22,197 nucleotides of DNA, taken from IMG/VR virus record IMGVR_UViG_3300044984_000203, positions 1-22,197 of that record; one strand, given 5' to 3'. A program made the position numbers and the translations under genes. The DNA is from a virus. This document shows, one piece after another, positions 11,522 through 21,595 of the stretch (position 1 is the first letter of the stretch; each line of letters begins with the position of its first letter). A model generated the notes under the pieces. The model was not told where the DNA came from. It saw only the letters and a list, made by a program, of their open reading frames with translations, and made no database searches.

Positions 11522-12966
11522 TGCCGATACTAGGAATTATGGCATCTGCCGAAAAGAATGTACCTAATGCGCCAACCATTGGCACAGCAACAGATGTAGG
11601 TACTTCACGTGCCTATAACAATGGTGCTGCGACCGTAACATTTACTGCGCCATCATTTGATGGTAAGTTACCTATTACTTCTTACACAGTTACATCAAGC
11701 CCTGGTGGATTTACAGCCTCTGGCGCATCTTCACCATTGACAGTAACAGGATTACAGTCGTCTACTTCATATACATTTACTGTAACTGCAACTAATGCTA
11801 TTGGCACAAGTGCTGCATCTAGCGCAACTGCAAGCATTACTGCAACTACAGTTCCTCAGGCTCCTACTATTGGTACTGCTACTGCTGGTAATGCATCTGC
11901 AACTGTTACTTATACAGCGGGTGCAACAGGTGGCAAGGCAGTATCTGCCTATACAGCAACAGCATCTCCTGGTGGAGCAACAGGAACAGGTGCAAGCCCA
12001 ATTACAGTTTCAGGATTGTCTAATGGAACTGCTTATACATTCACAGTTACAGCAACTAATGCTAATGGAACTTCAACAGCATCTGCTGCATCTAACTCTG
12101 TAACTCCTGTCAACCCTGTTCAAAGCGTGTTCTATCAAGTATCTGCTGGCGGTGGAGGCGGTGGTGCTTCTCGTCACAACGATGGATACTATGGTGCAGT
12201 TTACGCAGGTTCAGGTGGCGGTGGTGGCGGTGTTACCACTGGCACTGTAAATTTCTCACAAGGTTCTAGTTATACTATTACCGTCGGTGGAGGCGGGGGT
12301 GTACACGCAAATGGTTCTAACAGTTCTATTTCTGGACCAAGCGTTAGTGTTTCTCGCCTTGGTGGTGGTGGTGGTGGTGGTAGCGGTAGTACAAGCACTT
12401 CTGGACTTGAAGGATTAAATGGTGCGTGTGGTGGTGGAGGTTTTCCTACTGCAGGTACAGGTTCACAAGGACAAAATGGCGCTACTAATGCGTCAGCAAT
12501 ACTCACCAACGGTGGCGGTGGAGTTACTGACCCAGGTCAAACATACGGTTTGAACTTTGGTAGAGGTGGCTACGGCGGTTTTGGTGTTTCTAGTATTGAT
12601 GGTCAAGGTCTCTACTCAGGCGGCGGTGGCGGTGGCGGAGCCTGTAATAGCGATGGACCAGGACAAGGCAATGGTATACCAGCAAACGCTGGTGGCTATG
12701 GTGGAGCCTGGCCCGATGGAGTTGGGCAGGCTGGCAATGCTGGTCAAGGTACAGGTGGTGGCTCTGGTGCTAGATATGTTCCATCTAATTATGCTGCTGC
12801 AACAACAAATGGCGGTAATGGTGGTAGCGGCAATGTCTACATAAGAGTACCTGTTGCCGTAAGCGCAGTAGCAACAACTGGCTCACCTTCTGTATATACA
12901 GGATTTATAGATGGAGTTAATTATAGATTTTATCGTTACTTTGGAAGCGGGAGTATTACATTCTAA
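11521..12966 (+). CDS. Adhesin-like virion protein: two Fn3 domains plus polyglycine region, 481 aa
   Basis: The start chosen is the ATG at 11521, which overlaps the fibre stop as TAATG; an upstream in-frame ATG at 11491 lies inside the fibre gene. Residues 15-109 and 112-198 are two fibronectin type III domains, each with PxAPTIGTAT, a middle ITSYTVT/VSAYTAT strand and a SYTFTVTATN or AYTFTVTATN strand. Residues about 209-445 are glycine-rich, with runs of five to eight Gly and beta-like pieces such as SSYTITVGGGGG, like domains predicted to form packed polyglycine helices in phage adhesins. The C-terminus (about 445-481) is aromatic and ends in GSGSITF. A role as a host-range-determining tip protein is inferred from composition and position. 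Confidence 0.75.
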   Translation: MPILGIMASAEKNVPNAPTIGTATDVGTSRAYNNGAATVTFTAPSFDGKLPITSYTVTSSPGGFTASGASSPLTVTGLQSSTSYTFTVTATNAIGTSAASSATASITATTVPQAPTIGTATAGNASATVTYTAGATGGKAVSAYTATASPGGATGTGASPITVSGLSNGTAYTFTVTATNANGTSTASAASNSVTPVNPVQSVFYQVSAGGGGGGASRHNDGYYGAVYAGSGGGGGGVTTGTVNFSQGSSYTITVGGGGGVHANGSNSSISGPSVSVSRLGGGGGGGSGSTSTSGLEGLNGACGGGGFPTAGTGSQGQNGATNASAILTNGGGGVTDPGQTYGLNFGRGGYGGFGVSSIDGQGLYSGGGGGGGACNSDGPGQGNGIPANAGGYGGAWPDGVGQAGNAGQGTGGGSGARYVPSNYAAATTNGGNGGSGNVYIRVPVAVSAVATTGSPSVYTGFIDGVNYRFYRYFGSGSITF

Positions 12967-13790
12967 TGGCACACTTTGCAGAACTAGATGAGACTAATAT
13001 GGTTAAGCAAGTAATTGTTGTAGATAACAATGAGTTGCTTGATGAAAATGGAAACGAATCTGAACAAAAAGGCATTGACTTTTGCGTCAACCTTTTAGGT
13101 GGTACTTGGGTTCAAACATCCTATAACAAAAACTTTCGGGTTAACTACGCAATAAAAGGAATGATTTATGACCCAACCCTTAATGGATTTATGTATAAAA
13201 AACCATTAAATGGTGAGTGGCAATTAAACCAATCAACTTTAGATTGGGAAGAAATTGACCGTGAGTATCCAAGAAATTGGTTTTATAATATGGGAGCAAA
13301 AGAATTCTTTGATAGAAATATGACTGAATTTATTGACAAGCCAAATCTAAAGTTTCTAGAAATTGGCTCCTGGGTTGGCACAAGCGCCATTGAACAAGTA
13401 AAGAACTTTTTAACTGGCGAAAACTCTACAATAACCTGTGTTGATATTTGGGATATTCCAAAAGTAGAACAATACTTTGATGAGCGAACAGCGCCTTATG
13501 CTGACAAAATCATAAAAGTAAAAAGCGATAGCAAGGTTTGGCTGGAGAACAACCAAGACCAACTGTTTGATTTTATCTACGTTGACTGTTACTACTCTGC
13601 AGAAGCCATTGAATCAGATACAAGATTATCCTGGCCTCTGCTCAAGGTAGGTGGGGTTATGGCATTAGACGATGTCTTGTTCAATGAAGAATCAAACGCA
13701 GCACACAGAGTTTTTCTTGAAAGCATTAAAGATAAGTCAATTATTATTGAAGATGGTTATCAAGTTTGGGTAAGAAAACTAGAACAATAA
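12966..13790 (+). CDS. Fusion: virion-type N-terminal module + class I SAM-dependent methyltransferase, 274 aa
   Basis: It starts on TAATG after the adhesin gene. Residues 1-97 match a small module I know as a stand-alone protein in aquatic phages: MAHFAELDETNMVKQVIVVD at the start, GGTWVQTSYNKNFRVNYA in the middle and a W-x-LN-x-STLDWE end. Residues about 128-240 are a Rossmann-type methyltransferase: FLEIGSWVGTSA (130-141, the SAM glycine loop), acidic CVDIWD (158-163) and FDFIYVDCYYSAEA (201-214), then LKVGGVMALDD (226-236). The fold resembles the Methyltransf_24 / O-methyltransferase group. The target is unknown; glycans or tail proteins are possible given the glycosyltransferase next door. 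The segment between adhesin and promoter suggests it belongs to the tail module. Confidence 0.75.
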   Translation: MAHFAELDETNMVKQVIVVDNNELLDENGNESEQKGIDFCVNLLGGTWVQTSYNKNFRVNYAIKGMIYDPTLNGFMYKKPLNGEWQLNQSTLDWEEIDREYPRNWFYNMGAKEFFDRNMTEFIDKPNLKFLEIGSWVGTSAIEQVKNFLTGENSTITCVDIWDIPKVEQYFDERTAPYADKIIKVKSDSKVWLENNQDQLFDFIYVDCYYSAEAIESDTRLSWPLLKVGGVMALDDVLFNEESNAAHRVFLESIKDKSIIIEDGYQVWVRKLEQ

Positions 13791-14612: not shown

Positions 14613-16862
14613 GTGGCTGGTCGTGATATTACCGAAGGTCGTGCAACGCGGTCCATTGCTGTTGACGTAGGTGTAGTTTCTACAACTGCTATCTGGCAGA
14701 ACACTGATGTAGCATATGATGTTGCAGTAGGTGGAATGCCGTTTATTTATGCAATTAGTGATGCACGTCCTTATATCCGACAGACTGCACCTTTCAAGAA
14801 GGAACAGTTTGATAACCAGACAGAACCAGGTGAGCAATCACTTACTGGTTGGTGGATTCGTAGTCAGCAATCTTTTCATGGCGGAGATGGTATAACCTTT
14901 TACGACCCAGCAAATGCTACATCTAATTCACCTGACCACTATCGCTTTGCCGACAGCAAGGGCGTAGATGTATGGACACAGGGTGAAGTAACGCTACTCA
15001 ATGATGTAACTAACACACATCAAACTACTGGTTCAGTGGTGGGTACAGACCATCAACACCCTAACCAACACGCCCGTTCTATTCAATGGTCTGGAGTTAA
15101 TGGTGTACTACTACATGATGAGTTTGATGTAGATAAAATCTATCCAGCAATTACAGTATCGATTAGCAATAAGGCTTTGACATCTAACGTAGCCACTCTT
15201 ACAACATCTGCAGCACACGGGCTTACAGTCGGCATGACTATTACAATTACAGGTGTAGATGCAACATTTAATGGTGATTATCGTATTACAACTGTGCCTA
15301 CAACAACTACTTTTACCTATGCTAAAGTTGCTTCTAATGTAAGTTCAACTGCAGTATCACCAGTTGGTACTGGTATAACAAACCCAGTAATTCACTACAT
15401 TGATTACATTTCAGGTACTGATAAAAAAGTATTTGCTATCTGTGATGACGGGGTTAATGCTTACTGGATAACAAACAAAACGGTAGGTGGAAATCAACGC
15501 CTTACTATGTTTAAGAAGCCATTAAGTGGTGACTCAACTACTGGTTCATCTAATCCCTCTGCATCTGGTGACGTTACTCAAATGTTCCAAAGTGGTAACA
15601 TTGAAATTCAGTACGCAACTATGGAGTTTGTAAAAGACCGTATTATTCTTTGCGTAAACAATGCTGTTTATGAGTTAACTACCGCTGATACATCATTACC
15701 AACAGCAACATTTACTAACACCAATACCAACTATCATTACACATCAGTTGCTGCATCTGGTCCTGCCATTTACACAGCGGGTCACTCAGGCATCTATTCA
15801 ACTATTCAGAAGTATACACTTACAGCCGCTGGTGCTTTGCCAACATTAACATCTGCTGTTGTTGCAGCAGAACTTCCAGCGGGTGAGATAGTAGAAAAGA
15901 TATATTACTACTTAGGTTATATGATGATTGGAACTAACAAGGGTGTACGCGCTGCTGTAGTTTCAGACCAAGATGGCTCAATCAATTATGGTCCACTTAT
16001 TCTAGAAACATCACAGCCAGTCTACGACTTTGCTGGCAGAGATAGATTCGTATGGGCTACAACAGGAGTTGGCACATTAGATGGTGGACTTACTCGTATA
16101 GACCTTGGTCTAGAGATATCACCGCTACGTTTTGCTTATGCAAATGACGTGTATATATCACAAACTACTGAACATTATACAACAGCGTGTGCATTCCTTG
16201 GTGTAACCAATCGCATTGCATTTACAACTGCTTTCGAAGTAACTGATGGAGCAATCTACCTTGAGTCAACAGACTTAATATCGACTGGATACCTACAAAC
16301 TGGCTACATCCGATACAATACATTAGAGCCTAAAAACTTTAAACGTCTTGTTGCACGTGGTGATTTTACTAAGGGGTCTATGACCCTTGAAACAGTTACC
16401 GCTGATGGCACTGAGTACGATGTTGTCTCATATGATTCATCTGTACCTCCAGTAGAAGTAACCACATCTAACCCACAGGAAGCACAGGAGTACTTGGCTT
16501 ACAAGTTTATCCTATACCGTGATGGTGATGATGCTACTAAGGGACCAATCATGAAGGGCTACCAAGCGAAGGCAACTATCGCTACGCCTAGACAACGAGT
16601 AATGAAATTCCCAGTCTATTGTTATGATGTCGAGACAGACAGATACAACGTACAGACAGGGTATGAGGGACGAGCGTTCGATAGAATTGGCCAACTAGAA
16701 TCCGTTGAACAAAACGGTGACGTTGTAACTTGGCAAGACTTAACCACAGGTGAGTCACGTCAAGTGGTCATTGAACAAGTCTCCTTCACCCGCCTCACAC
16801 CTCCAGACCGTGGCTTTACTGGTTATGGTGGTGTCATTGATATCACGATTAGGACTGTGTAA
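14613..16862 (+). CDS. Tail protein, 749 aa (actinophage minor-tail / tail-tube type)
   Basis: It starts with GTG; AAGGAG (14602-14607) overlaps the upstream stop and lies five bases away. The N-terminal 170 residues include ARPYIRQTAPFKKEQFD (51-67), TEPGEQSLTGWWIRSQ (70-85) and SFHGGDGITFYDP, a motif series I associate with minor tail proteins of actinobacterial phages. Residues about 181-252 are an inserted beta module (NVATLTTSAAHGLTVGMTI, then ITGVDATFNGDYRI), a recurrent add-on in virion proteins. The rest is beta-rich with blade-like repeats (VFAICDDGVNAYWI, ILCVNNAVYEL, MMIGTNKGVRA), possibly a propeller, and a C-terminal beta domain from about 560. In a short-tailed phage it could be the nozzle or tail-tubular protein. 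Confidence 0.7.
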   Translation: MAGRDITEGRATRSIAVDVGVVSTTAIWQNTDVAYDVAVGGMPFIYAISDARPYIRQTAPFKKEQFDNQTEPGEQSLTGWWIRSQQSFHGGDGITFYDPANATSNSPDHYRFADSKGVDVWTQGEVTLLNDVTNTHQTTGSVVGTDHQHPNQHARSIQWSGVNGVLLHDEFDVDKIYPAITVSISNKALTSNVATLTTSAAHGLTVGMTITITGVDATFNGDYRITTVPTTTTFTYAKVASNVSSTAVSPVGTGITNPVIHYIDYISGTDKKVFAICDDGVNAYWITNKTVGGNQRLTMFKKPLSGDSTTGSSNPSASGDVTQMFQSGNIEIQYATMEFVKDRIILCVNNAVYELTTADTSLPTATFTNTNTNYHYTSVAASGPAIYTAGHSGIYSTIQKYTLTAAGALPTLTSAVVAAELPAGEIVEKIYYYLGYMMIGTNKGVRAAVVSDQDGSINYGPLILETSQPVYDFAGRDRFVWATTGVGTLDGGLTRIDLGLEISPLRFAYANDVYISQTTEHYTTACAFLGVTNRIAFTTAFEVTDGAIYLESTDLISTGYLQTGYIRYNTLEPKNFKRLVARGDFTKGSMTLETVTADGTEYDVVSYDSSVPPVEVTTSNPQEAQEYLAYKFILYRDGDDATKGPIMKGYQAKATIATPRQRVMKFPVYCYDVETDRYNVQTGYEGRAFDRIGQLESVEQNGDVVTWQDLTTGESRQVVIEQVSFTRLTPPDRGFTGYGGVIDITIRTV
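15153..15368 (+). other. Inserted beta module within the tail protein
   Basis: Residues about 181-252 contain AHGLTVGMTITITGVDATFN and FTYAKVAS, separated from the flanking tail sequence by Ser/Thr-rich linkers. This is a widespread exchangeable unit in phage virion proteins, to my knowledge, and often varies between close relatives. Confidence 0.5.
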
Positions 16863-17071
16863 TGTCTACTGCTCAATGGCTAGGATTAGCCGTATCTGTT
16901 TGTACTTTAATTGCCGCATTTGCCACATCAGTACGTTGGCTAGTTAAGCATTACCTGTACGAACTTAAACCTAACTCTGGCTCGAGCCTAAAAGATTCAG
17001 TCATTCGACTAGAAGAAAAAGTAGAAATACTCTATCAGATGATGCTACAAAAGGGAAGAGATGACAAATAA
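16862..17071 (+). CDS. Small lysis-cassette membrane protein, one TM plus coiled coil, 69 aa
   Basis: It starts and ends on TAATG overlaps. One transmembrane helix (about residues 5-27) is followed by a basic-aromatic hinge (WLVKHYLYELKP) and a charged amphipathic helix (about 42-66) likely to form a coiled coil. Proteins with this design sit in many actinophage lysis cassettes. They may act as a holin partner, an antiholin or a second membrane effector. It lies directly before the endolysin, with the two-TM holin after it. The exact role cannot be told from sequence. Confidence 0.65.
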   Translation: MSTAQWLGLAVSVCTLIAAFATSVRWLVKHYLYELKPNSGSSLKDSVIRLEEKVEILYQMMLQKGRDDK

Positions 17072-17538
17072 TGAAACCTGTTGTCAAGAAAGCCACGCCT
17101 GCCGCTATTGCTGTCCTACGACAGGCCACAGCGATAGCACCATCGCGTATGAAAGCCAGCGATGGACTCCTGCCATCAGCAGCGCATATCCATCAGAATC
17201 CCAATTCTGACCATAATACAGGATTTGGTGTAGACTTAACCCATGACCCTGCACGTGGTATTGATTGCCATGATATCTATGAGCAACTCAAGAACGATAA
17301 GCGTGTTAAGTATCTAATTTTCAAGGGTCAGATATGGATTCCTGGTAGAGGCGATAAGCCATACACTGGTAGCAATCCTCATAATAAACATTTACATATA
17401 TCAATCAAGGATAACTGTGGGGATGACACCTCTCCGTGGTTCCCATGGTTAGACAAGCCTAAGTTCTCTACTACTAACCAAGCCAGGTTAGCGGTATCTA
17501 AACTAAAGCCCCTACCGAAAAAGAAGGAAAATAAATGA
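17071..17538 (+). CDS. Endolysin: M15-family zinc peptidase (peptidoglycan cross-bridge/stem peptide)
   Basis: At 155 residues it is a single-domain enzyme. The zinc site is visible as SDHNTGFGVDLTHD (46-59), giving His48 and Asp55 in the SxHxxGxAxD-type motif of M15 peptidases, and HNKHLHIS (104-111), giving the HxH pair His107/His109. The substrate should be stem or cross-link peptides in the host wall. There is no signal peptide, so export depends on a holin. The C-terminus is a short Lys/Pro-rich tail (about 136-155) that could bind anionic wall polymers. No separate wall-binding domain is present. It is TAATG-coupled to the gene before and overlaps the holin gene by four bases (ATGA). 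Confidence 0.85.
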   Translation: MKPVVKKATPAAIAVLRQATAIAPSRMKASDGLLPSAAHIHQNPNSDHNTGFGVDLTHDPARGIDCHDIYEQLKNDKRVKYLIFKGQIWIPGRGDKPYTGSNPHNKHLHISIKDNCGDDTSPWFPWLDKPKFSTTNQARLAVSKLKPLPKKKENK

Positions 17539-17750
17539 AAGCACTAATCAATAAGTTCCTTGGTCCAAAGGATATAGCAGCAATTAAGTCATACTTACGC
17601 GCCTTGCTAGCATCTGCTGTGACCATGGGTATTGCTCTTCTTACAGACATGAAGCCTGAGTACGCAGTACTAATCGGCGCATTGGCTGCACCATTGGCTA
17701 AATGGGCTGATAAGAATGAAACAGCATACGGACGAGGCTCCGAAGAGTAG
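17535..17750 (+). CDS. Holin, two transmembrane segments
   Basis: At 71 residues it has two hydrophobic helices (about 21-38 and 42-57) separated by a short polar turn with DMKPEY, a basic N-terminus and a charged C-terminus (WADKNETAYGRGSEE). This is the layout of r1t-type holins of Gram-positive phages, which collect in the membrane and open it at a set time so the endolysin reaches the wall. The ATGA overlap with the endolysin gene suggests coupled translation. It is the last gene of the late unit; the terminator begins 30 nt after its stop. Confidence 0.85.
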   Translation: MKALINKFLGPKDIAAIKSYLRALLASAVTMGIALLTDMKPEYAVLIGALAAPLAKWADKNETAYGRGSEE

Positions 17751-17779
17751 TCCAAATAAGCCCTCCAAGGCCCTTTTAA

Positions 17780-17833
17780 GACAAGAAACCCCCTTACCTT
17801 AGTAGAAATACTAGGGCGAGGGGGTCTTTTGTC
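17780..17833. terminator. Long two-part hairpin, probably bidirectional rho-independent terminator
   Basis: Bases 17780-17793 pair with 17820-17833 (13 of 14 positions, one G-U), including CCCCC/GGGGG. Inside, CCTTAGTA (17797-17804, one bulge) pairs with TACTAGG (17809-17815) around a GAAA loop. On the + strand TCTTTTGTCGTTT follows; on the - strand TTTCTTGTCTTAAAA follows. It sits between the converging late unit and leftward gene. Confidence 0.85.
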
Positions 17834-17900
17834 GTTTATGATGCAAACCTTGGCTACTGGAACGTTACTCAGTAGTAGCAGTTAATGCCATTCAACATTG

Positions 17901-18053
17901 TTACTCTTGGTATTCCTCTTCGAGGTCTTCCAAGAATCTCTCGTATTGCTTTCCTCGAATTCGTGCTTTAACATCGTAGTAGGCTGCCTCTAGGGCATAG
18001 AATACAACGATACCAGTAAGTGAAGCCAGTGCTACTTCTAGAAAATTTGACAT
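17901..18053 (-). CDS. Small leftward membrane protein, 50 aa, unknown function
   Basis: This is the only gene read leftwards in the window. AAGGAG (18063-18058 on the - strand) lies four bases before the ATG at 18053, and a near-perfect promoter stands upstream at 18158-18131. The protein starts MSNFLEVALASLTGIVVFYA, one transmembrane helix (about 4-24), then a basic turn (VKARIRGKQ, 28-36) and an acidic, Glu-rich C-terminus (40-50). The positive patch after the helix suggests the C-terminus is inside the cell. It is too short for homology by eye. An early membrane effector (superinfection exclusion, holin control or host take-over) is possible, but this is inference. Confidence 0.7.
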   Translation of the reverse strand: MSNFLEVALASLTGIVVFYALEAAYYDVKARIRGKQYERFLEDLEEEYQE

Positions 18054-18086
18054 AGTACTCCTTAGATATAATTATAGTTAATATAC

Positions 18087-18114
18087 TATATACAAGGCCA
18101 AAGGCCTTTATATA
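18087..18114. terminator. Hairpin in the leader of the leftward gene / insulator before the early genes
   Basis: TATATA (18087-18092) and AAGGCC (18094-18099) pair with GGCCTT (18103-18108) and TATATA (18109-18114), with one bulged C and an AAA loop. On the + strand TTTTCTTT follows, as in a weak terminator. On the - strand it lies about 10 nt inside the predicted transcript. Confidence 0.5.
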
Positions 18115-18130
18115 TTTTCTTTATATATCA

Positions 18131-18158
18131 ATTATACACGTATTTTTTCAGATGTCAA
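18131..18158 (-). promoter_or_regulatory. Consensus sigma70 promoter for the leftward gene
   Basis: On the - strand: TTGACA (18158-18153), a 16-bp spacer and TATAAT (18136-18131), both perfect matches to the consensus hexamers. The start site should be near 18124, giving a leader of about 70 nt to the ATG at 18053. Confidence 0.85.
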
Positions 18159-18176
18159 TTATTTAAATGTTTGACA
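18153..18176. promoter_or_regulatory. Imperfect 24-bp palindrome joining the two -35 boxes (candidate operator)
   Basis: TGTCAA, TT, ATTTAAAT, GT, TTGACA: 20 of 24 positions obey two-fold symmetry. Both outer arms are -35 hexamers, so a dimeric regulator bound here would block or organise both promoters together. Part of the symmetry follows simply from the two -35 boxes facing outwards. Confidence 0.5.
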
Positions 18177-18200
18177 GATACCCAACTGTGGTCTTATACT
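18171..18200 (+). promoter_or_regulatory. Rightward early promoter, predicted leaderless
   Basis: TTGACA (18171-18176), an 18-bp spacer and TATACT (18195-18200). Six bases follow, then the ATG at 18207. No Shine-Dalgarno is present before that ATG, so the transcript probably begins at or next to the start codon. Confidence 0.7.
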
Positions 18201-18206
18201 TGAACC

Positions 18207-18398
18207 ATGTCAATCAAACTAGAAGAATATACTCTACCAGAGCACATATCGTACTCTGCATTCACTACCTACCTTACGTGTGGGTATCAATACTACCTCG
18301 GCAGACTCCTCAATAAGGAGGAAGCCCCATCCGTCTGGTCTGTTGGCGGTTCAGCGTTCCACCTAGCGTGTGAAAACTACGACAAGGAGAACGTATGA
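18207..18398 (+). CDS. Cas4/RecB-like PD-(D/E)XK nuclease, N-terminal half, 63 aa
   Basis: It carries the N-terminal motifs of Cas4/RecB-type exonucleases: ISYSAFTTYLTCGYQYYLGR (14-33), with Cys25 in the place of the first iron-sulfur ligand, and VGGSAFHLACENY (46-58) with His52 and Glu56 (motif I). It stops there. The active-site Asp/Lys residues and the other three Cys are in the next gene, which overlaps by four bases (ATGA). Together the two products make one full-length domain, so I read this as gene fission. No Shine-Dalgarno precedes the start (predicted leaderless mRNA). A sequencing error at the junction is less likely, because the ATGA junction is a normal coupled start. Confidence 0.75.
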   Translation: MSIKLEEYTLPEHISYSAFTTYLTCGYQYYLGRLLNKEEAPSVWSVGGSAFHLACENYDKENV

Positions 18399-19006
18399 GC
18401 GTACAGCAACTATGGGACCAAGCATGGGTTGAGTGCAAAGGTGACACCGACCTAACCAATGCTCGCGTTGGCGGTCGTGCAACCAAGGCTAACCCTAACA
18501 AAGAAGACGTTACCTTCTGGCAAAACCAAGGACCCAAGTGGGTTGAGGCTTACATTGCATGGCGTAAGGCTAACCCTACATGGAATATCTGGACAGCACC
18601 AGATGGAAACCGAGCAATTGAACTTGCCCTGACTCCCGTAGTCAAGGATGTTCAAGTCAAGATGATTATTGACCGCGTATTCGAAGTCAATGGTGAACTT
18701 GTAATTGTCGACTTAAAGACATCTCAGAATACTCCAACTAGCAACCTTCAACTTGCCTTCTATAAACTTGGGCTGGAACAACAGTTCGGTATCAAGGTCA
18801 AGTGGGGTACGTATTACATGTCACGTGGTAATAACATCTCAGAGATGGTAGACCTATCTGAGTACACCTACGACAAAATGGAATACCTAATAGAAACATT
18901 TGACAAAGCCCGTAAGGCTGCGTTATTCTTACCCAACACAAACAGTTGCCAGTACATGTGCGGACTCACGGAATACTGTCAATTCTCTATTAAGAAGGAT
19001 AAATAA
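18395..19006 (+). CDS. Cas4/RecB-like PD-(D/E)XK nuclease, C-terminal half, 203 aa
   Basis: It holds the catalytic core of the split nuclease: KMIIDRVF with Asp93 (motif II), LVIVDLKTS with Asp106 and Lys108 (motif III, D-x-K) and QLAFY with Gln119 and Tyr123. The C-terminus has CQYMCGLTEYC (Cys185, Cys189, Cys195), the three C-terminal ligands of a 4Fe-4S cluster, whose fourth Cys is in the preceding protein. Residues 1-60 align by eye with the region that normally follows motif I. Such enzymes trim or recombine phage DNA ends. It heads the replication block, directly before a zinc-ribbon protein. Confidence 0.8.
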   Translation: MSVQQLWDQAWVECKGDTDLTNARVGGRATKANPNKEDVTFWQNQGPKWVEAYIAWRKANPTWNIWTAPDGNRAIELALTPVVKDVQVKMIIDRVFEVNGELVIVDLKTSQNTPTSNLQLAFYKLGLEQQFGIKVKWGTYYMSRGNNISEMVDLSEYTYDKMEYLIETFDKARKAALFLPNTNSCQYMCGLTEYCQFSIKKDK

Positions 19007-19437: not shown

Positions 19438-19515
19438 AACTAGGGAGGGAACAAATGAGAACACTAGTACGCTCAGTAGGACGTGCCTCAATTGGAGGGG
19501 AACCCCTCCCTAGTT
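19438..19515 (+). promoter_or_regulatory. 12-bp inverted repeat that can mask the Shine-Dalgarno of the ATPase gene
   Basis: AACTAGGGAGGG (19438-19449) contains the Shine-Dalgarno for the ATG at 19455. Its exact complement CCCTCCCTAGTT is at 19504-19515, codons 17-21 of the gene. A rival local hairpin, GGAGGG (19494-19499) with CCCTCC (19504-19509) around GAAC, uses the same right arm and would leave the Shine-Dalgarno free. Confidence 0.6.
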
Positions 19516-20237
19516 CATTTAGAGCATTTGAACAGAACAAGATTATCATACGTCGTTCAGAAGTTTCTATGTTTGCAGGTGCGCCAGGAGCGGGAAAATC
19601 TACTCTAGCCCTAGCACTTGCACTTAAGACCAACGTGCCAACATTGTATATCTCAGCAGATACCAATGCACACACAATGGCTATGCGCCTAGCATCTATG
19701 ATTTCGGGGAAGAGTCAGTCGGATGTAGAGCAGAAACTTAATACTGATGTTGGTTGGACGAAGGCGGTCCTCCAAAAGGGAAGTCATATAATCTGGTCGT
19801 TCGAATCCTCGCCAACCTTAGAAGATATTGATGAGGAAGTCCAAGCATTTGAAGAGTTGTGGGGATGCAGCCCATCTCTCATTGTCTTGGACAACCTCAT
19901 GGATGTTGCCACCGATGGTGGCGAAGAGTTCGCATCTATGCGAGCCATTATGAAGGAGTTGAAGTATCTTGCGAGAGCAACTAATGCAGCGATTGTTGTA
20001 CTACACCACACTTCGGAAGCAGTTCCAGGAAATCCTTGTCAACCGCGAAGCGCTATTCAAGGAAAAGTCTCTCAACTCCCTGCGCTTATATGTACACTTG
20101 GAACTGTTGGCACATCAATGGGCGTTGCATCAGTCAAGAATCGCTATGGACGAGCAGACGCGAATGGAACGCTCATGACATGGCTTGCATTTAATCCAGA
20201 ATATATGTACATCGATGATATACCCGAGAATGTTTAG
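19455..20237 (+). CDS. RecA/DnaB-type AAA ATPase (putative replicative helicase), 260 aa
   Basis: A RecA-fold core is clear: Walker A GAPGAGKST (42-50, Lys48), YISADT (65-70, strand with acidic residue), Walker B SLIVLDNL (141-148, Asp146) and AIVVLHHTSE (179-188), the motif III-like strand. Residues 198-225 (RSAIQGKVSQLPALICTLG) resemble the DNA-contact loop region of RepA/DnaB-like proteins, and NRYGRAD (about 228-234) supplies basic residues of the end motif. It lacks a DnaB N-terminal domain. At this size it could be a hexameric helicase or a RecA-like recombination ATPase; nearby primase favours helicase. Confidence 0.75.
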   Translation: MRTLVRSVGRASIGGEPLPSSFRAFEQNKIIIRRSEVSMFAGAPGAGKSTLALALALKTNVPTLYISADTNAHTMAMRLASMISGKSQSDVEQKLNTDVGWTKAVLQKGSHIIWSFESSPTLEDIDEEVQAFEELWGCSPSLIVLDNLMDVATDGGEEFASMRAIMKELKYLARATNAAIVVLHHTSEAVPGNPCQPRSAIQGKVSQLPALICTLGTVGTSMGVASVKNRYGRADANGTLMTWLAFNPEYMYIDDIPENV

Positions 20238-20416: not shown

Positions 20417-20762
20417 GGCTAGAGGTGCAACCTATGAAACCGACATCCGAGACTGGTTTAGAGCAAATGGATACGATAGTGAACGACTTGCTCGAACAGG
20501 TGCGAAAGACGAAGGAGACGTTGTTGTCCGTAAAGACTTCCTTGGCTCAATTGGGGTTATTGAATGTAAGGCTCCAGGAGCAGGCAACGCCATTGACCTT
20601 AGTGGATGGACAAAAGAAGCACAAGTGGAAGCCGTACATTACGCAGAAGCCAGAGGGCTTACGCGAGAGCAGGTAATGCCAGCAGTACTAATCAAAGCAA
20701 GAGGCAAGTCAATAGCAGATTCGTATCTAGTATTAAGGTTGGGCGATGTATTTGGTGGATGA
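20394..20762 (+). CDS. Holliday-junction-resolvase-like PD-(D/E)XK nuclease, 122 aa
   Basis: Three in-frame ATGs lie close together (20382, 20388, 20394). I choose 20394 because the product then begins MTTRKSHKARGATYE, as expected for Hjc-like enzymes. The catalytic set is Glu15 (GATYE), Asp42 (DEGDVVV) and Glu57-x-Lys59 (VIECKA), followed by Gln77 and a hydrophobic strand VMPAVLIKARG. This fits small archaeal-type resolvases and phage relatives that cut branched DNA in recombination or before packaging. It overlaps the preceding small gene by 23 bases and the primase zinc-finger gene by up to 17. A general VRR-type nuclease is the alternative. Confidence 0.7.
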   Translation: MTTRKSHKARGATYETDIRDWFRANGYDSERLARTGAKDEGDVVVRKDFLGSIGVIECKAPGAGNAIDLSGWTKEAQVEAVHYAEARGLTREQVMPAVLIKARGKSIADSYLVLRLGDVFGG

Positions 20763-21120
20763 CTTACCAGACATAGTAGCGGTGTTGAAGCACTACGGTG
20801 CCAACATTACTCGAGCGTCTGGTCAAGTCAACGTCAAGTGTCCGTTCCACAATGATAGTCATGCAAGTGCAAGTTTCAATACAAGACAGAATATTTTTAA
20901 TTGCTTCGCGTGTGGTATGCAAGGCAATAGCATTCAAATAATTGCTAAGAGAGAAGGGTGTGATATACGTGAAGCAAAGTCTATCGCAGAAGGAATTACT
21001 GGGGAGAGCAACGAGCAAGTACGCGGGAAACATCTCTCTGGCGGAAGATTACCTAGCAAGTCGGGGAATAACAAAGGAAGTAGCGCGTCTGGCGCGATTA
21101 GGCGTAGTAGAGGAACCTGA
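20746..21120 (+). CDS. DNA primase, CHC2-type zinc-finger part, 124 aa
   Basis: The zinc site is plain: CPFH (Cys32, His35) and CFAC (Cys53, Cys56), with HASASFN between them and GNSIQIIAKREGC after, as in DnaG-type primase zinc domains. The domain proper ends near residue 88. The remaining 36 residues are basic and Gly/Ser-rich and run in a different frame over the start of the next gene. The start is either ATG 20746 or GTG 20755; no strong Shine-Dalgarno decides it. The catalytic TOPRIM part is in the overlapping gene. Confidence 0.75.
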   Translation: MYLVDDLPDIVAVLKHYGANITRASGQVNVKCPFHNDSHASASFNTRQNIFNCFACGMQGNSIQIIAKREGCDIREAKSIAEGITGESNEQVRGKHLSGGRLPSKSGNNKGSSASGAIRRSRGT

Positions 21121-21595
21121 ACCTGGACATGAACAGTACACGGGTCGCCTCAGCATACCGTACATTACAAAGACTGGCGTTGTTGACCTGCGCTTTCGCT
21201 CTCTTAACCCTGCCGTTGAACCGAAGTATATGGGTATGGTCGGTGTTGATACTCGCATGTACAACGTACTTGACATTGAGACTGCTGGAGATTGGATTGG
21301 TGTCTGCGAAGGAGAGTTGGATACGCTTACTATGTCTAAGTTGGTCGGAATTCCCTGCGTTGGCGTTCCTGGGGCGAACTCTTGGAAGAAGCACTATACA
21401 AGATTGTTGGCCGATTTCGAACGCATCTTCGTCTTTGCCGATGGTGATGCCCCAGGGCGTGAGTTCGCGGCAAGTTTATCTAGAGAACTTCCTGTCACTA
21501 CAGTTACATTTGGAGACGGAGAAGATGTTAACAGTGCTTATATCCGATACGGAGCGCAATTTATCAGAGAAAAAATGGGGTTAAACGTTGATTGA
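20942..21595 (+). CDS. DNA primase, TOPRIM catalytic part (start uncertain), 217 aa or less
   Basis: The TOPRIM motifs are VCEGELDTL (121-129, Glu123) and FADGDAPG (165-172, Asp167/Asp169). Before them lies the N-terminal catalytic subdomain with SLAEDYLASRGIT (32-44) and GRLSIPY (68-74). The frame opens with no ATG; TTG 20942, GTG 20960 and GTG 20969 are possible starts, none with a well-placed Shine-Dalgarno. It overlaps the zinc-finger gene by 179 nt in the +1 frame, so it is made by internal initiation or by a +1 frameshift that yields a full primase. No helicase domain follows; the ATPase at 19455 may serve that role. Confidence 0.75.
   Translation: MLREKGVIYVKQSLSQKELLGRATSKYAGNISLAEDYLASRGITKEVARLARLGVVEEPEPGHEQYTGRLSIPYITKTGVVDLRFRSLNPAVEPKYMGMVGVDTRMYNVLDIETAGDWIGVCEGELDTLTMSKLVGIPCVGVPGANSWKKHYTRLLADFERIFVFADGDAPGREFAASLSRELPVTTVTFGDGEDVNSAYIRYGAQFIREKMGLNVD

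What the first reader, a model, noticed from the sequence alone, without database searches (positions are those of the whole stretch)
17901..18176. Hidden leftward membrane-protein gene under a perfect consensus promoter
The only leftward gene in 22 kb codes 50 residues with one membrane helix, a strong ribosome site and a promoter whose two hexamers both match consensus exactly. It sits between the lysis cassette and the early genes. A strong promoter spent on one tiny membrane protein suggests an early effector such as superinfection exclusion, holin control or host membrane take-over. Gene and promoter are seen in the sequence; the role is inference.
Basis: partly seen in the sequence, partly recalled or inferred. 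Interest (0 to 1): 0.7.

Follow-up and report, generated by a model that had tools for sequence, protein, structure and literature searches.

The report
Early phage membrane microprotein, hairpin-led mRNA
A tiny membrane-protein gene that faces the opposite way to its neighbours in a freshwater-bacterium virus is real, is kept in many relatives at the same spot, and sits beside the start signal of the virus's replication genes, although what the protein does is still unknown.

Summary
The 50-codon leftward frame (17901-18053, minus strand) is a real gene. Relatives encode similar single-helix proteins, divergent from the exonuclease gene in 84 of 84 testable cases fetched with the leftward protein itself, under purifying selection (median dN/dS 0.28). 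TTGACA-16-TATAAT is the only perfect promoter in the window (0.02 expected). It faces a second promoter (TTGACA-18-TATACT) that would start the replication operon without a leader.

(2) The protein's divergence tracks the exonuclease (rho 0.61-0.72), not holin or endolysin (0.06, 0.02), so holin control is unlikely. (3) The gene is accessory: cultured 'Ca. Planktophila' phages E7 and F5 lack it, and their one hairpin leader faces the early operon instead.

Best reading: an early, accessory, single-pass membrane effector acting on the host envelope, superinfection exclusion first among its possible roles. The role is inference. No Pfam, PHROG or NCBIfam family matches.

The parts
17901..18053 (-). 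Leftward gene, 50 aa, N-terminal membrane helix, basic juxtamembrane stretch, acidic tail
   Evidence: frame; relatives and place; dN/dS; one helix 2-49; no family match
18058..18063 (-). Ribosome site AAGGAG, four bases before the ATG
   Evidence: sequence
18094..18108 (-). G+C hairpin AAGGCC-TTT-GGCCTT in the A+T-rich 5' leader
   Evidence: conserved hairpin, paired changes; searches do not support it by folding energy
18131..18136 (-). Leftward -10, TATAAT
18153..18158 (-). Leftward -35, TTGACA; left arm of a TGTCAA-N12-TTGACA dyad
   Evidence: dyad read
18171..18176 (+). Rightward -35, TTGACA; right arm of the dyad
   Evidence: class-A relatives mostly keep it with 18-nt spacing
18195..18200 (+). 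Rightward -10, TATACT, six bases before the exonuclease ATG at 18207 (leaderless start inferred)
18207..18398 (+). Exonuclease N part (63 aa, PDDEXK_1), first gene of the early operon
18395..19006 (+). Exonuclease C part (203 aa, PDDEXK_1/Cas4-like)
17780..17833 (.). Long hairpin between the lysis cassette and the leftward gene; probable terminator, T-rich tail better on the rightward side
   Evidence: -38.4 kcal/mol rightward, z -6.4; -37.3 leftward, z -4.9
16862..17750 (+). Probable lysis cassette: 69-aa membrane protein, 155-aa probable endolysin, 71-aa holin-like protein
   Evidence: PHROG families of unknown function only; lysis roles are by inspection and position

Best explanation
An early, accessory membrane microprotein gene. 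The host polymerase with its main sigma factor starts leftward at about 18124 from the consensus promoter. The mRNA begins with an A+T-rich leader that holds a G+C hairpin, which probably steadies the message or its start; then follow a strong ribosome site and the 50-codon frame, and the transcript probably ends in the long hairpin before the lysis genes. The same intergenic stretch starts the replication operon in the other direction; with the -35 boxes 12 bp apart the two polymerases would compete, and both units are exposed to the same regulation. The protein is one helix: its N end crosses the membrane, a small-x3-small face packs against another helix (itself or a host membrane protein), and a basic-then-acidic tail lies in the cytoplasm. 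Since it is dispensable in relatives, it most likely helps the phage hold the host envelope, by superinfection exclusion or by blocking a host membrane protein. Shown: gene, conservation, place, promoter sequence, leader hairpin, absence in E7/F5. Inferred: timing, topology, leader function, competition, role. Within this statement I put superinfection exclusion at about 0.35 and other envelope or anti-defence action at about 0.35.
For: Frame conservation and purifying selection: (median dN/dS 0.28 over 261 of 2485 pairs, those with pS 0.05-0.5; largest 1.07). Same place. Promoter rarity. Leader: 107 of 107 scored relatives have a G+C hairpin, 25-39 nt from the -10, 56 of them at exactly 28; stricter count 105 of 109 against 13.3 (largest 23) in shuffles. 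Pairing kept through two-sided changes at 3 of 5 stem pairs. Leader differs at 3.6% and 5.1% where fourfold sites differ at 33% and 47% (within leader types a and b, 171 and 289 pairs). Early module: rho 0.61 and 0.72 with the two exonuclease parts against 0.06 and 0.02 with holin and endolysin, 25 loci. Facing promoter. Protein: helix 2-49, pLDDT 89.9; small-x3-G or G-x3-small in 106 of 106 proteins against 44 in shuffles; negative or neutral first six residues in 105 of 106; acidic last twelve in 106 of 106. Accessory: no member in E7 or F5.
Against: No transcript or protein data. Hydropathy is modest: best 19-residue mean 1.74 in the window protein, and only 61 of 106 relatives reach 1.6, so some may sit on the membrane rather than cross it. 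Whole-leader folding energy is not unusual (z -0.75 for the window, -1.98, -0.13, -0.73 for three others), and RNAalifold predicted no pair on the full alignment. On, further pair types were no more than in shuffles (4 against 5.0) and three stem rows are misaligned. Leader identity could owe something to recombination: the same leader occurs with different promoter cores and coding sequences. The leftward T-tail of the terminator is weak and about the same in phages without the gene. No partner and no functional homologue.
Confidence: 0.6

Rival explanations
1. Lysis timer: an antiholin-like protein that binds the holin-like protein next door.
For: Single small membrane helix beside the lysis cassette; convergent lysis gene in 31 of 32 and 26 of 37 testable loci.
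Against: Divergence does not follow the holin (rho 0.058, 85 of 500 permutations as high) or endolysin (0.019, 208 of 500), while holin and endolysin follow each other (0.588) and the leftward protein follows the exonuclease (25 family-I loci). Early-type promoter on the opposite strand. Close leftward proteins occur with holin-like genes only 37-46% identical to the window's.
Confidence: 0.1
2. Anti-defence or host take-over peptide: it binds one host membrane protein, such as a membrane-bound defence effector or transporter, and is not about later phages.
For: Accessory presence; in L022 and L033 the leftward frame after the lysis genes is instead a methyltransferase-like gene; small-x3-small helix face.
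Against: No match in PHROGs, Pfam or NCBIfam; PADLOC not searched; no host target.
Confidence: 0.3
3. The DNA/RNA element is the main thing: the A+T-rich hairpin module is a transcription-primed replication origin (or a regulatory RNA), and the small gene is a passenger.
For: One such site in the window and in whole E7 and F5; it is the most A+T-rich 120 bases of the window and of 28.4 kb of E7; leader far more alike than fourfold sites; the module stays, facing rightward, in E7, F5, L022, L028, L029 and L030, which lack the gene; it lies at the edge of the replication genes.
Against: The frame itself is under purifying selection. Cumulative GC skew shows no turn at the site in window or E7. 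No Rfam match. Five more distant relatives without the gene (L033, L059, L067, L072, L079) gave no such leader in the scan.
Confidence: 0.12
4. Chance frame under a chance promoter.
For: Only 50 codons; looser promoter-like sites in the region are no commoner than chance.
Against: relatives at one place; dN/dS; 0.02 expected.
Confidence: 0.01

Closest known systems
Planktophila phages LanE43AprE7 and LanE43AprF5 (OX376640, OX376641; PMC10202952, main text read)
   Same: Cultured relatives with the same gene order: probable endolysin (68.5% and 71.9% identity), holin-like gene, terminator hairpin, A+T-rich hairpin leader, two-part exonuclease, helicase (81.9%).
   Different: No leftward microprotein anywhere in either genome; the hairpin leader faces rightward and serves the early operon. 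The paper's main text does not mention a leftward membrane gene.
Small membrane superinfection-exclusion proteins (T4 Imm, lactococcal Sie2009 and the like; recalled, no call)
   Same: Small, membrane, phage-made, accessory, placed for early expression.
   Different: No sequence match sought or found to these by name; function untested; Imm is larger with two helices (recalled).
Aquarius gp41, putative superinfection-resistance protein of a Cutibacterium acnes phage (PMC11480721; abstract and passages)
   Same: N-terminal membrane segment, actinobacterial phage without integrase, expressed during infection.
   Different: About 179 residues with a non-cytoplasmic domain; not the same architecture; no sequence comparison made here.
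5' stem-loop leaders that lengthen mRNA life (ompA, papA, aprE; titles in the reference list of PMC3997798, passages only)
   Same: A hairpin near the 5' end of a well-translated message.
   Different: Here the hairpin starts about 16 nt inside the predicted RNA, in an A+T-only surrounding; no half-life data.

Membership tests
Phage superinfection-exclusion protein | Expression alone blocks infection by the same or related phages | not testable with these tools
   Needs a bench test
Phage superinfection-exclusion protein | Membrane location | tested here: inconclusive
   One helix with a hydrophobic N half (best 19-residue mean 1.74); prediction only
Phage superinfection-exclusion protein | Sequence relation to a known member | tested here: not met
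   No PHROG, Pfam or NCBIfam match for the window protein; two diverged relatives also unmatched in NCBIfam and only E 0.08-0.3 matches in PHROGs
Antiholin / lysis-cassette member | Co-evolves with the holin | tested here: not met
   rho 0.058, 85 of 500 permutations as high
Antiholin / lysis-cassette member | Transcribed with or timed to the lysis genes | tested here: not met
   Opposite strand, own promoter beside the early promoter; by sequence only
Sigma-70 type promoter | Both hexamers with 16-18 bp spacing | tested here: met
   12 of 12, spacer 16, 0.02 expected in the window
Structured 5' leader RNA | Stem kept by compensatory changes | tested here: met
   3 of 5 stem pairs with two-sided changes, 10 cells against 1.2 in shuffles; but no pair from RNAalifold
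Structured 5' leader RNA | Known RNA family | tested here: not met
   No Rfam match up to E 1 in 17700-18420
Replication origin | Turn of cumulative GC skew at the site | tested here: not met
   window and 28.4 kb of E7

The most novel reading that the evidence does not exclude
The intergenic stretch is a reversible early control module of Nanopelagicales phages: one A+T-rich promoter-plus-hairpin leader per genome, pointing left onto the microprotein or right onto the replication operon, which also serves as a transcription-primed replication origin; the leftward microprotein ties the copied DNA or its machinery to the host membrane.
Probability: 0.08. Interest if true: 0.75.

Novelty: new variant of a known kind. 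Interest (0 to 1): 0.45.

Why it matters
Phages of 'Ca. [quoted passage not shown] Here a small, testable early gene family is defined, with natural gene-plus and gene-minus phages and a cultured host for the gene-minus ones. The facing promoter pair, with interchangeable cores and a conserved hairpin leader that can point either way, gives a compact case of how a phage regulates its early switch. It also warns that a consensus promoter and a strong leader need not mean that the adjacent gene is the reason for them.

Tried and rejected
Tried with little result. The genome-contig scan gave one 24-residue match in a Planctomycetaceae MAG contig (L222), not followed up and judged chance. tblastn of the window protein in 50,697 phage records: no match up to E 10. 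Pfam, PHROGs, NCBIfam: none for the protein. Rfam: none. RNAalifold on the leader alignment predicted nothing; I then counted pairs of a structure read off the alignment, which favours that structure. Single-sequence folding was not unusual. GC skew gave no sign of an origin. The idea that gene-bearing phages have a better leftward terminator tail than gene-less ones failed: about 4.7 T in 10 on average against 4 in three of the gene-less loci. Paper searches found nothing on this gene (some lists were capped at 12-15 of up to 79 papers); the 2017 paper on freshwater actinophages is not held.

Limits of the counts. Script -10 calls preferred sites with a TTGACA-like box or a preceding TG, so those counts lean that way. 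In one search, 5 of 112 rows were left unscored (2 short upstream; 3 without a -10: L251, where one is visible but fell outside the script's window, and L241 and L036, where my script chose a wrong start). One search's script stopped with an error after its two main count lines; its 51 diverged rows include the two wrong starts. Diverged families were merged by an iterated profile search in a small set, which can drift for helical proteins; the shared place is the better argument.

Full report
What was claimed and what is there. The finding names a 50-residue leftward membrane-protein gene at 17901-18053 with a strong ribosome site and a promoter whose hexamers both match consensus. All are in the sequence. 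AAGGAG ends four bases before the ATG. TTGACA-16-TATAAT is the only perfect sigma-70 promoter in the 22,197 bases, 0.02 being expected by chance; looser promoter-like sites in the region are no commoner than in shuffles.

Whose genome. The helicase (19455-20237) is closest to two cultured phages of 'Ca. Planktophila', E7 and F5 (81.9%), then at under 60% to phages of Mycobacterium, Streptomyces, Propionibacterium and other actinobacteria (1451 records in all). The probable endolysin is 68.5% and 71.9% identical to theirs. So the window is very likely from a phage of freshwater Nanopelagicales or near kin (inference). PMC10202952 (main text) reports that E7 and F5 carry whiB-like and sigma-70 genes.

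Conservation. Viral-contig scans found the protein in 17 loci, 45 with an alignment, and diverged relatives in 63 and 10 (overlapping). An iterated profile search merged them into 112 distinct protein-plus-leader combinations. To avoid bias from loci fetched by their neighbours, I recounted on loci fetched with the leftward protein itself: the exonuclease lies divergent in 35 of 35 family-I and 49 of 49 diverged proteins with enough upstream sequence, a lysis gene convergent in 31 of 32 and 26 of 37. Among 261 of 2485 pairs with moderate synonymous difference the median dN/dS is 0.28 (quartiles 0.19-0.38, largest 1.07). The window against six relatives: pS 0.39-0.56, pN 0.13-0.20. The frame codes for a protein that selection keeps.

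The protein. AlphaFold2 on 13 relatives gives one helix, residues 2-49, mean pLDDT 89.9, pTM 0.51. The best 19-residue hydropathy window of the window protein scores 1.74; only 61 of 106 relatives reach 1.6, so a full membrane crossing is likely but not sure. In 106 of 106 proteins of 45 residues or more the hydrophobic part has a small-x3-G or G-x3-small pair (44 in shuffles, largest 57); the first six residues are net negative or neutral in 105 of 106; the last twelve are net negative in 106 of 106; positions 24-38 carry a median of four K, R or H. By the positive-inside rule this suggests N-out, C-in (inference). No match in Pfam, PHROGs or NCBIfam.

The promoter pair. The leftward TTGACA (18153-18158) and a rightward TTGACA (18171-18176) form a dyad with 12 bases between. 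The rightward -10, TATACT (18195-18200), lies six bases before the exonuclease ATG, so that transcript would be leaderless; in 87 of 92 scored relatives the ATG lies 6-8 bases after the rightward -10. PMC7148126 (abstract and passages) gives about 14% leaderless genes for mycobacteria. Of 106 relatives classed, 55 have TTGACA-like leftward boxes, 20 a CCAACGATTGG-like core, 15 a GGAA..TTCC dyad, 16 other cores. In the third kind a 9-bp inverted repeat, ATGGAAGTC-N6-GACTTCCAT, is seen in several members, with its right arm ending 17 nt before the leftward -10; reading the same sequence the other way, its left arm lies at about the same distance from the rightward -10. So the core is interchangeable, and the 'perfect consensus' is one version of it. 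That the two polymerases exclude each other is inference from the spacing.

The leader. Between -10 and ribosome site lies an A+T-rich leader with a short G+C hairpin: AAGGCC/GGCCTT in the window; AAAGCC/GGCTTT, AGAGCC/GGCTCT, AGGGCT/AGCCCT, ACCCC/GGGGT, AACGC/GCGTT in others. A hairpin was found in 107 of 107 scored leaders, 25-39 nt from the -10, exactly 28 in 56; on a stricter rule 105 of 109 against 13.3 expected. On 53 distinct aligned leaders 95% of cells pair, with 10 two-sided changes over 3 of 5 stem pairs (1.2 in shuffles); further pair types were not in excess. Against this, RNAalifold gave no structure and single leaders do not fold unusually well. Within the two main leader types the leader differs at 3.6% and 5.1% of sites where fourfold sites of the gene differ at 33% and 47%. 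Selection on the leader is the simple reading; recombination may add. I read the hairpin as an mRNA or start-region stabiliser like known 5' stem-loops (PMC3997798, passages and reference titles only); that is inference.

Which module it belongs to. In 25 family-I loci with all genes complete, distances of the leftward protein follow the exonuclease parts (rho 0.61, 0.72; 0 of 500 permutations) and not the holin (0.058) or endolysin (0.019), which follow each other (0.588). So a recombination border lies between lysis genes and leftward gene, and the gene travels with the early module. Linkage alone could give the exonuclease correlation, but the missing holin correlation speaks against an antiholin.

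Accessory. Of 22 relatives with both flanks but no hit to the window protein at first, 13 have a diverged small leftward gene and 9 do not. Two of the nine, L022 and L033, have a leftward methyltransferase-like gene there, though in L033 the exonuclease lies 3.6 kb away. Profiles of all three families find no member in whole E7 and F5 (best E 0.061, unrelated by eye). In E7, F5, L022, L028, L029 and L030 the hairpin leader faces rightward, onto the exonuclease; the five more distant gene-less relatives showed none. In the window, E7 and F5 there is one such leader site per genome or fragment.

Verdict. Observation confirmed; interpretation partly supported. The gene is an early-module, accessory, single-helix membrane microprotein of a family unnamed in the libraries searched. 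I rank superinfection exclusion first among its roles, at about 0.35, with other envelope or anti-defence actions about as likely. The most novel reading left open is that promoter and hairpin leader are a reversible early module that doubles as an origin; GC skew gives it no support.

Noticed in passing
18207-18398 and 18395-19006; L223 21015-21200 and 21184-21792: The PDDEXK exonuclease is two separate frames (63 + 203 aa) in the window, 61 + 202 aa in E7, and two separate matches in the relatives listed. The relative frame differs between window and E7, so a two-chain enzyme is likelier than a programmed frameshift.
   Followed up: partly
L223 20940-21015; also L029, L030: In phages with the rightward hairpin leader, an inverted repeat (ACATAGT..CTCCCTTA / TAAGGGAGGACTATGT) precedes the exonuclease start, and its loop holds CTCCTGTC, complementary to the ribosome site GACAGGAG: a possible translation switch. 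Read by eye.
   Followed up: no
L260, L256, L273 and others, upstream of the leftward gene: A perfect 9-bp inverted repeat ATGGAAGTC-N6-GACTTCCAT sits where both divergent -35 boxes should be: perhaps an activator site or an alternative sigma box.
   Followed up: partly
20746-21120 and 20942-21595: The primase is also in two overlapping frames: a CHC2 zinc ribbon and a Toprim-like part.
   Followed up: no
12966-13790; L022 and L033: A methyltransferase-like gene (Methyltransf_24) lies among the tail genes of the window, and genes of the same Pfam family lie leftward after the lysis genes in L022 and L033.
   Followed up: partly
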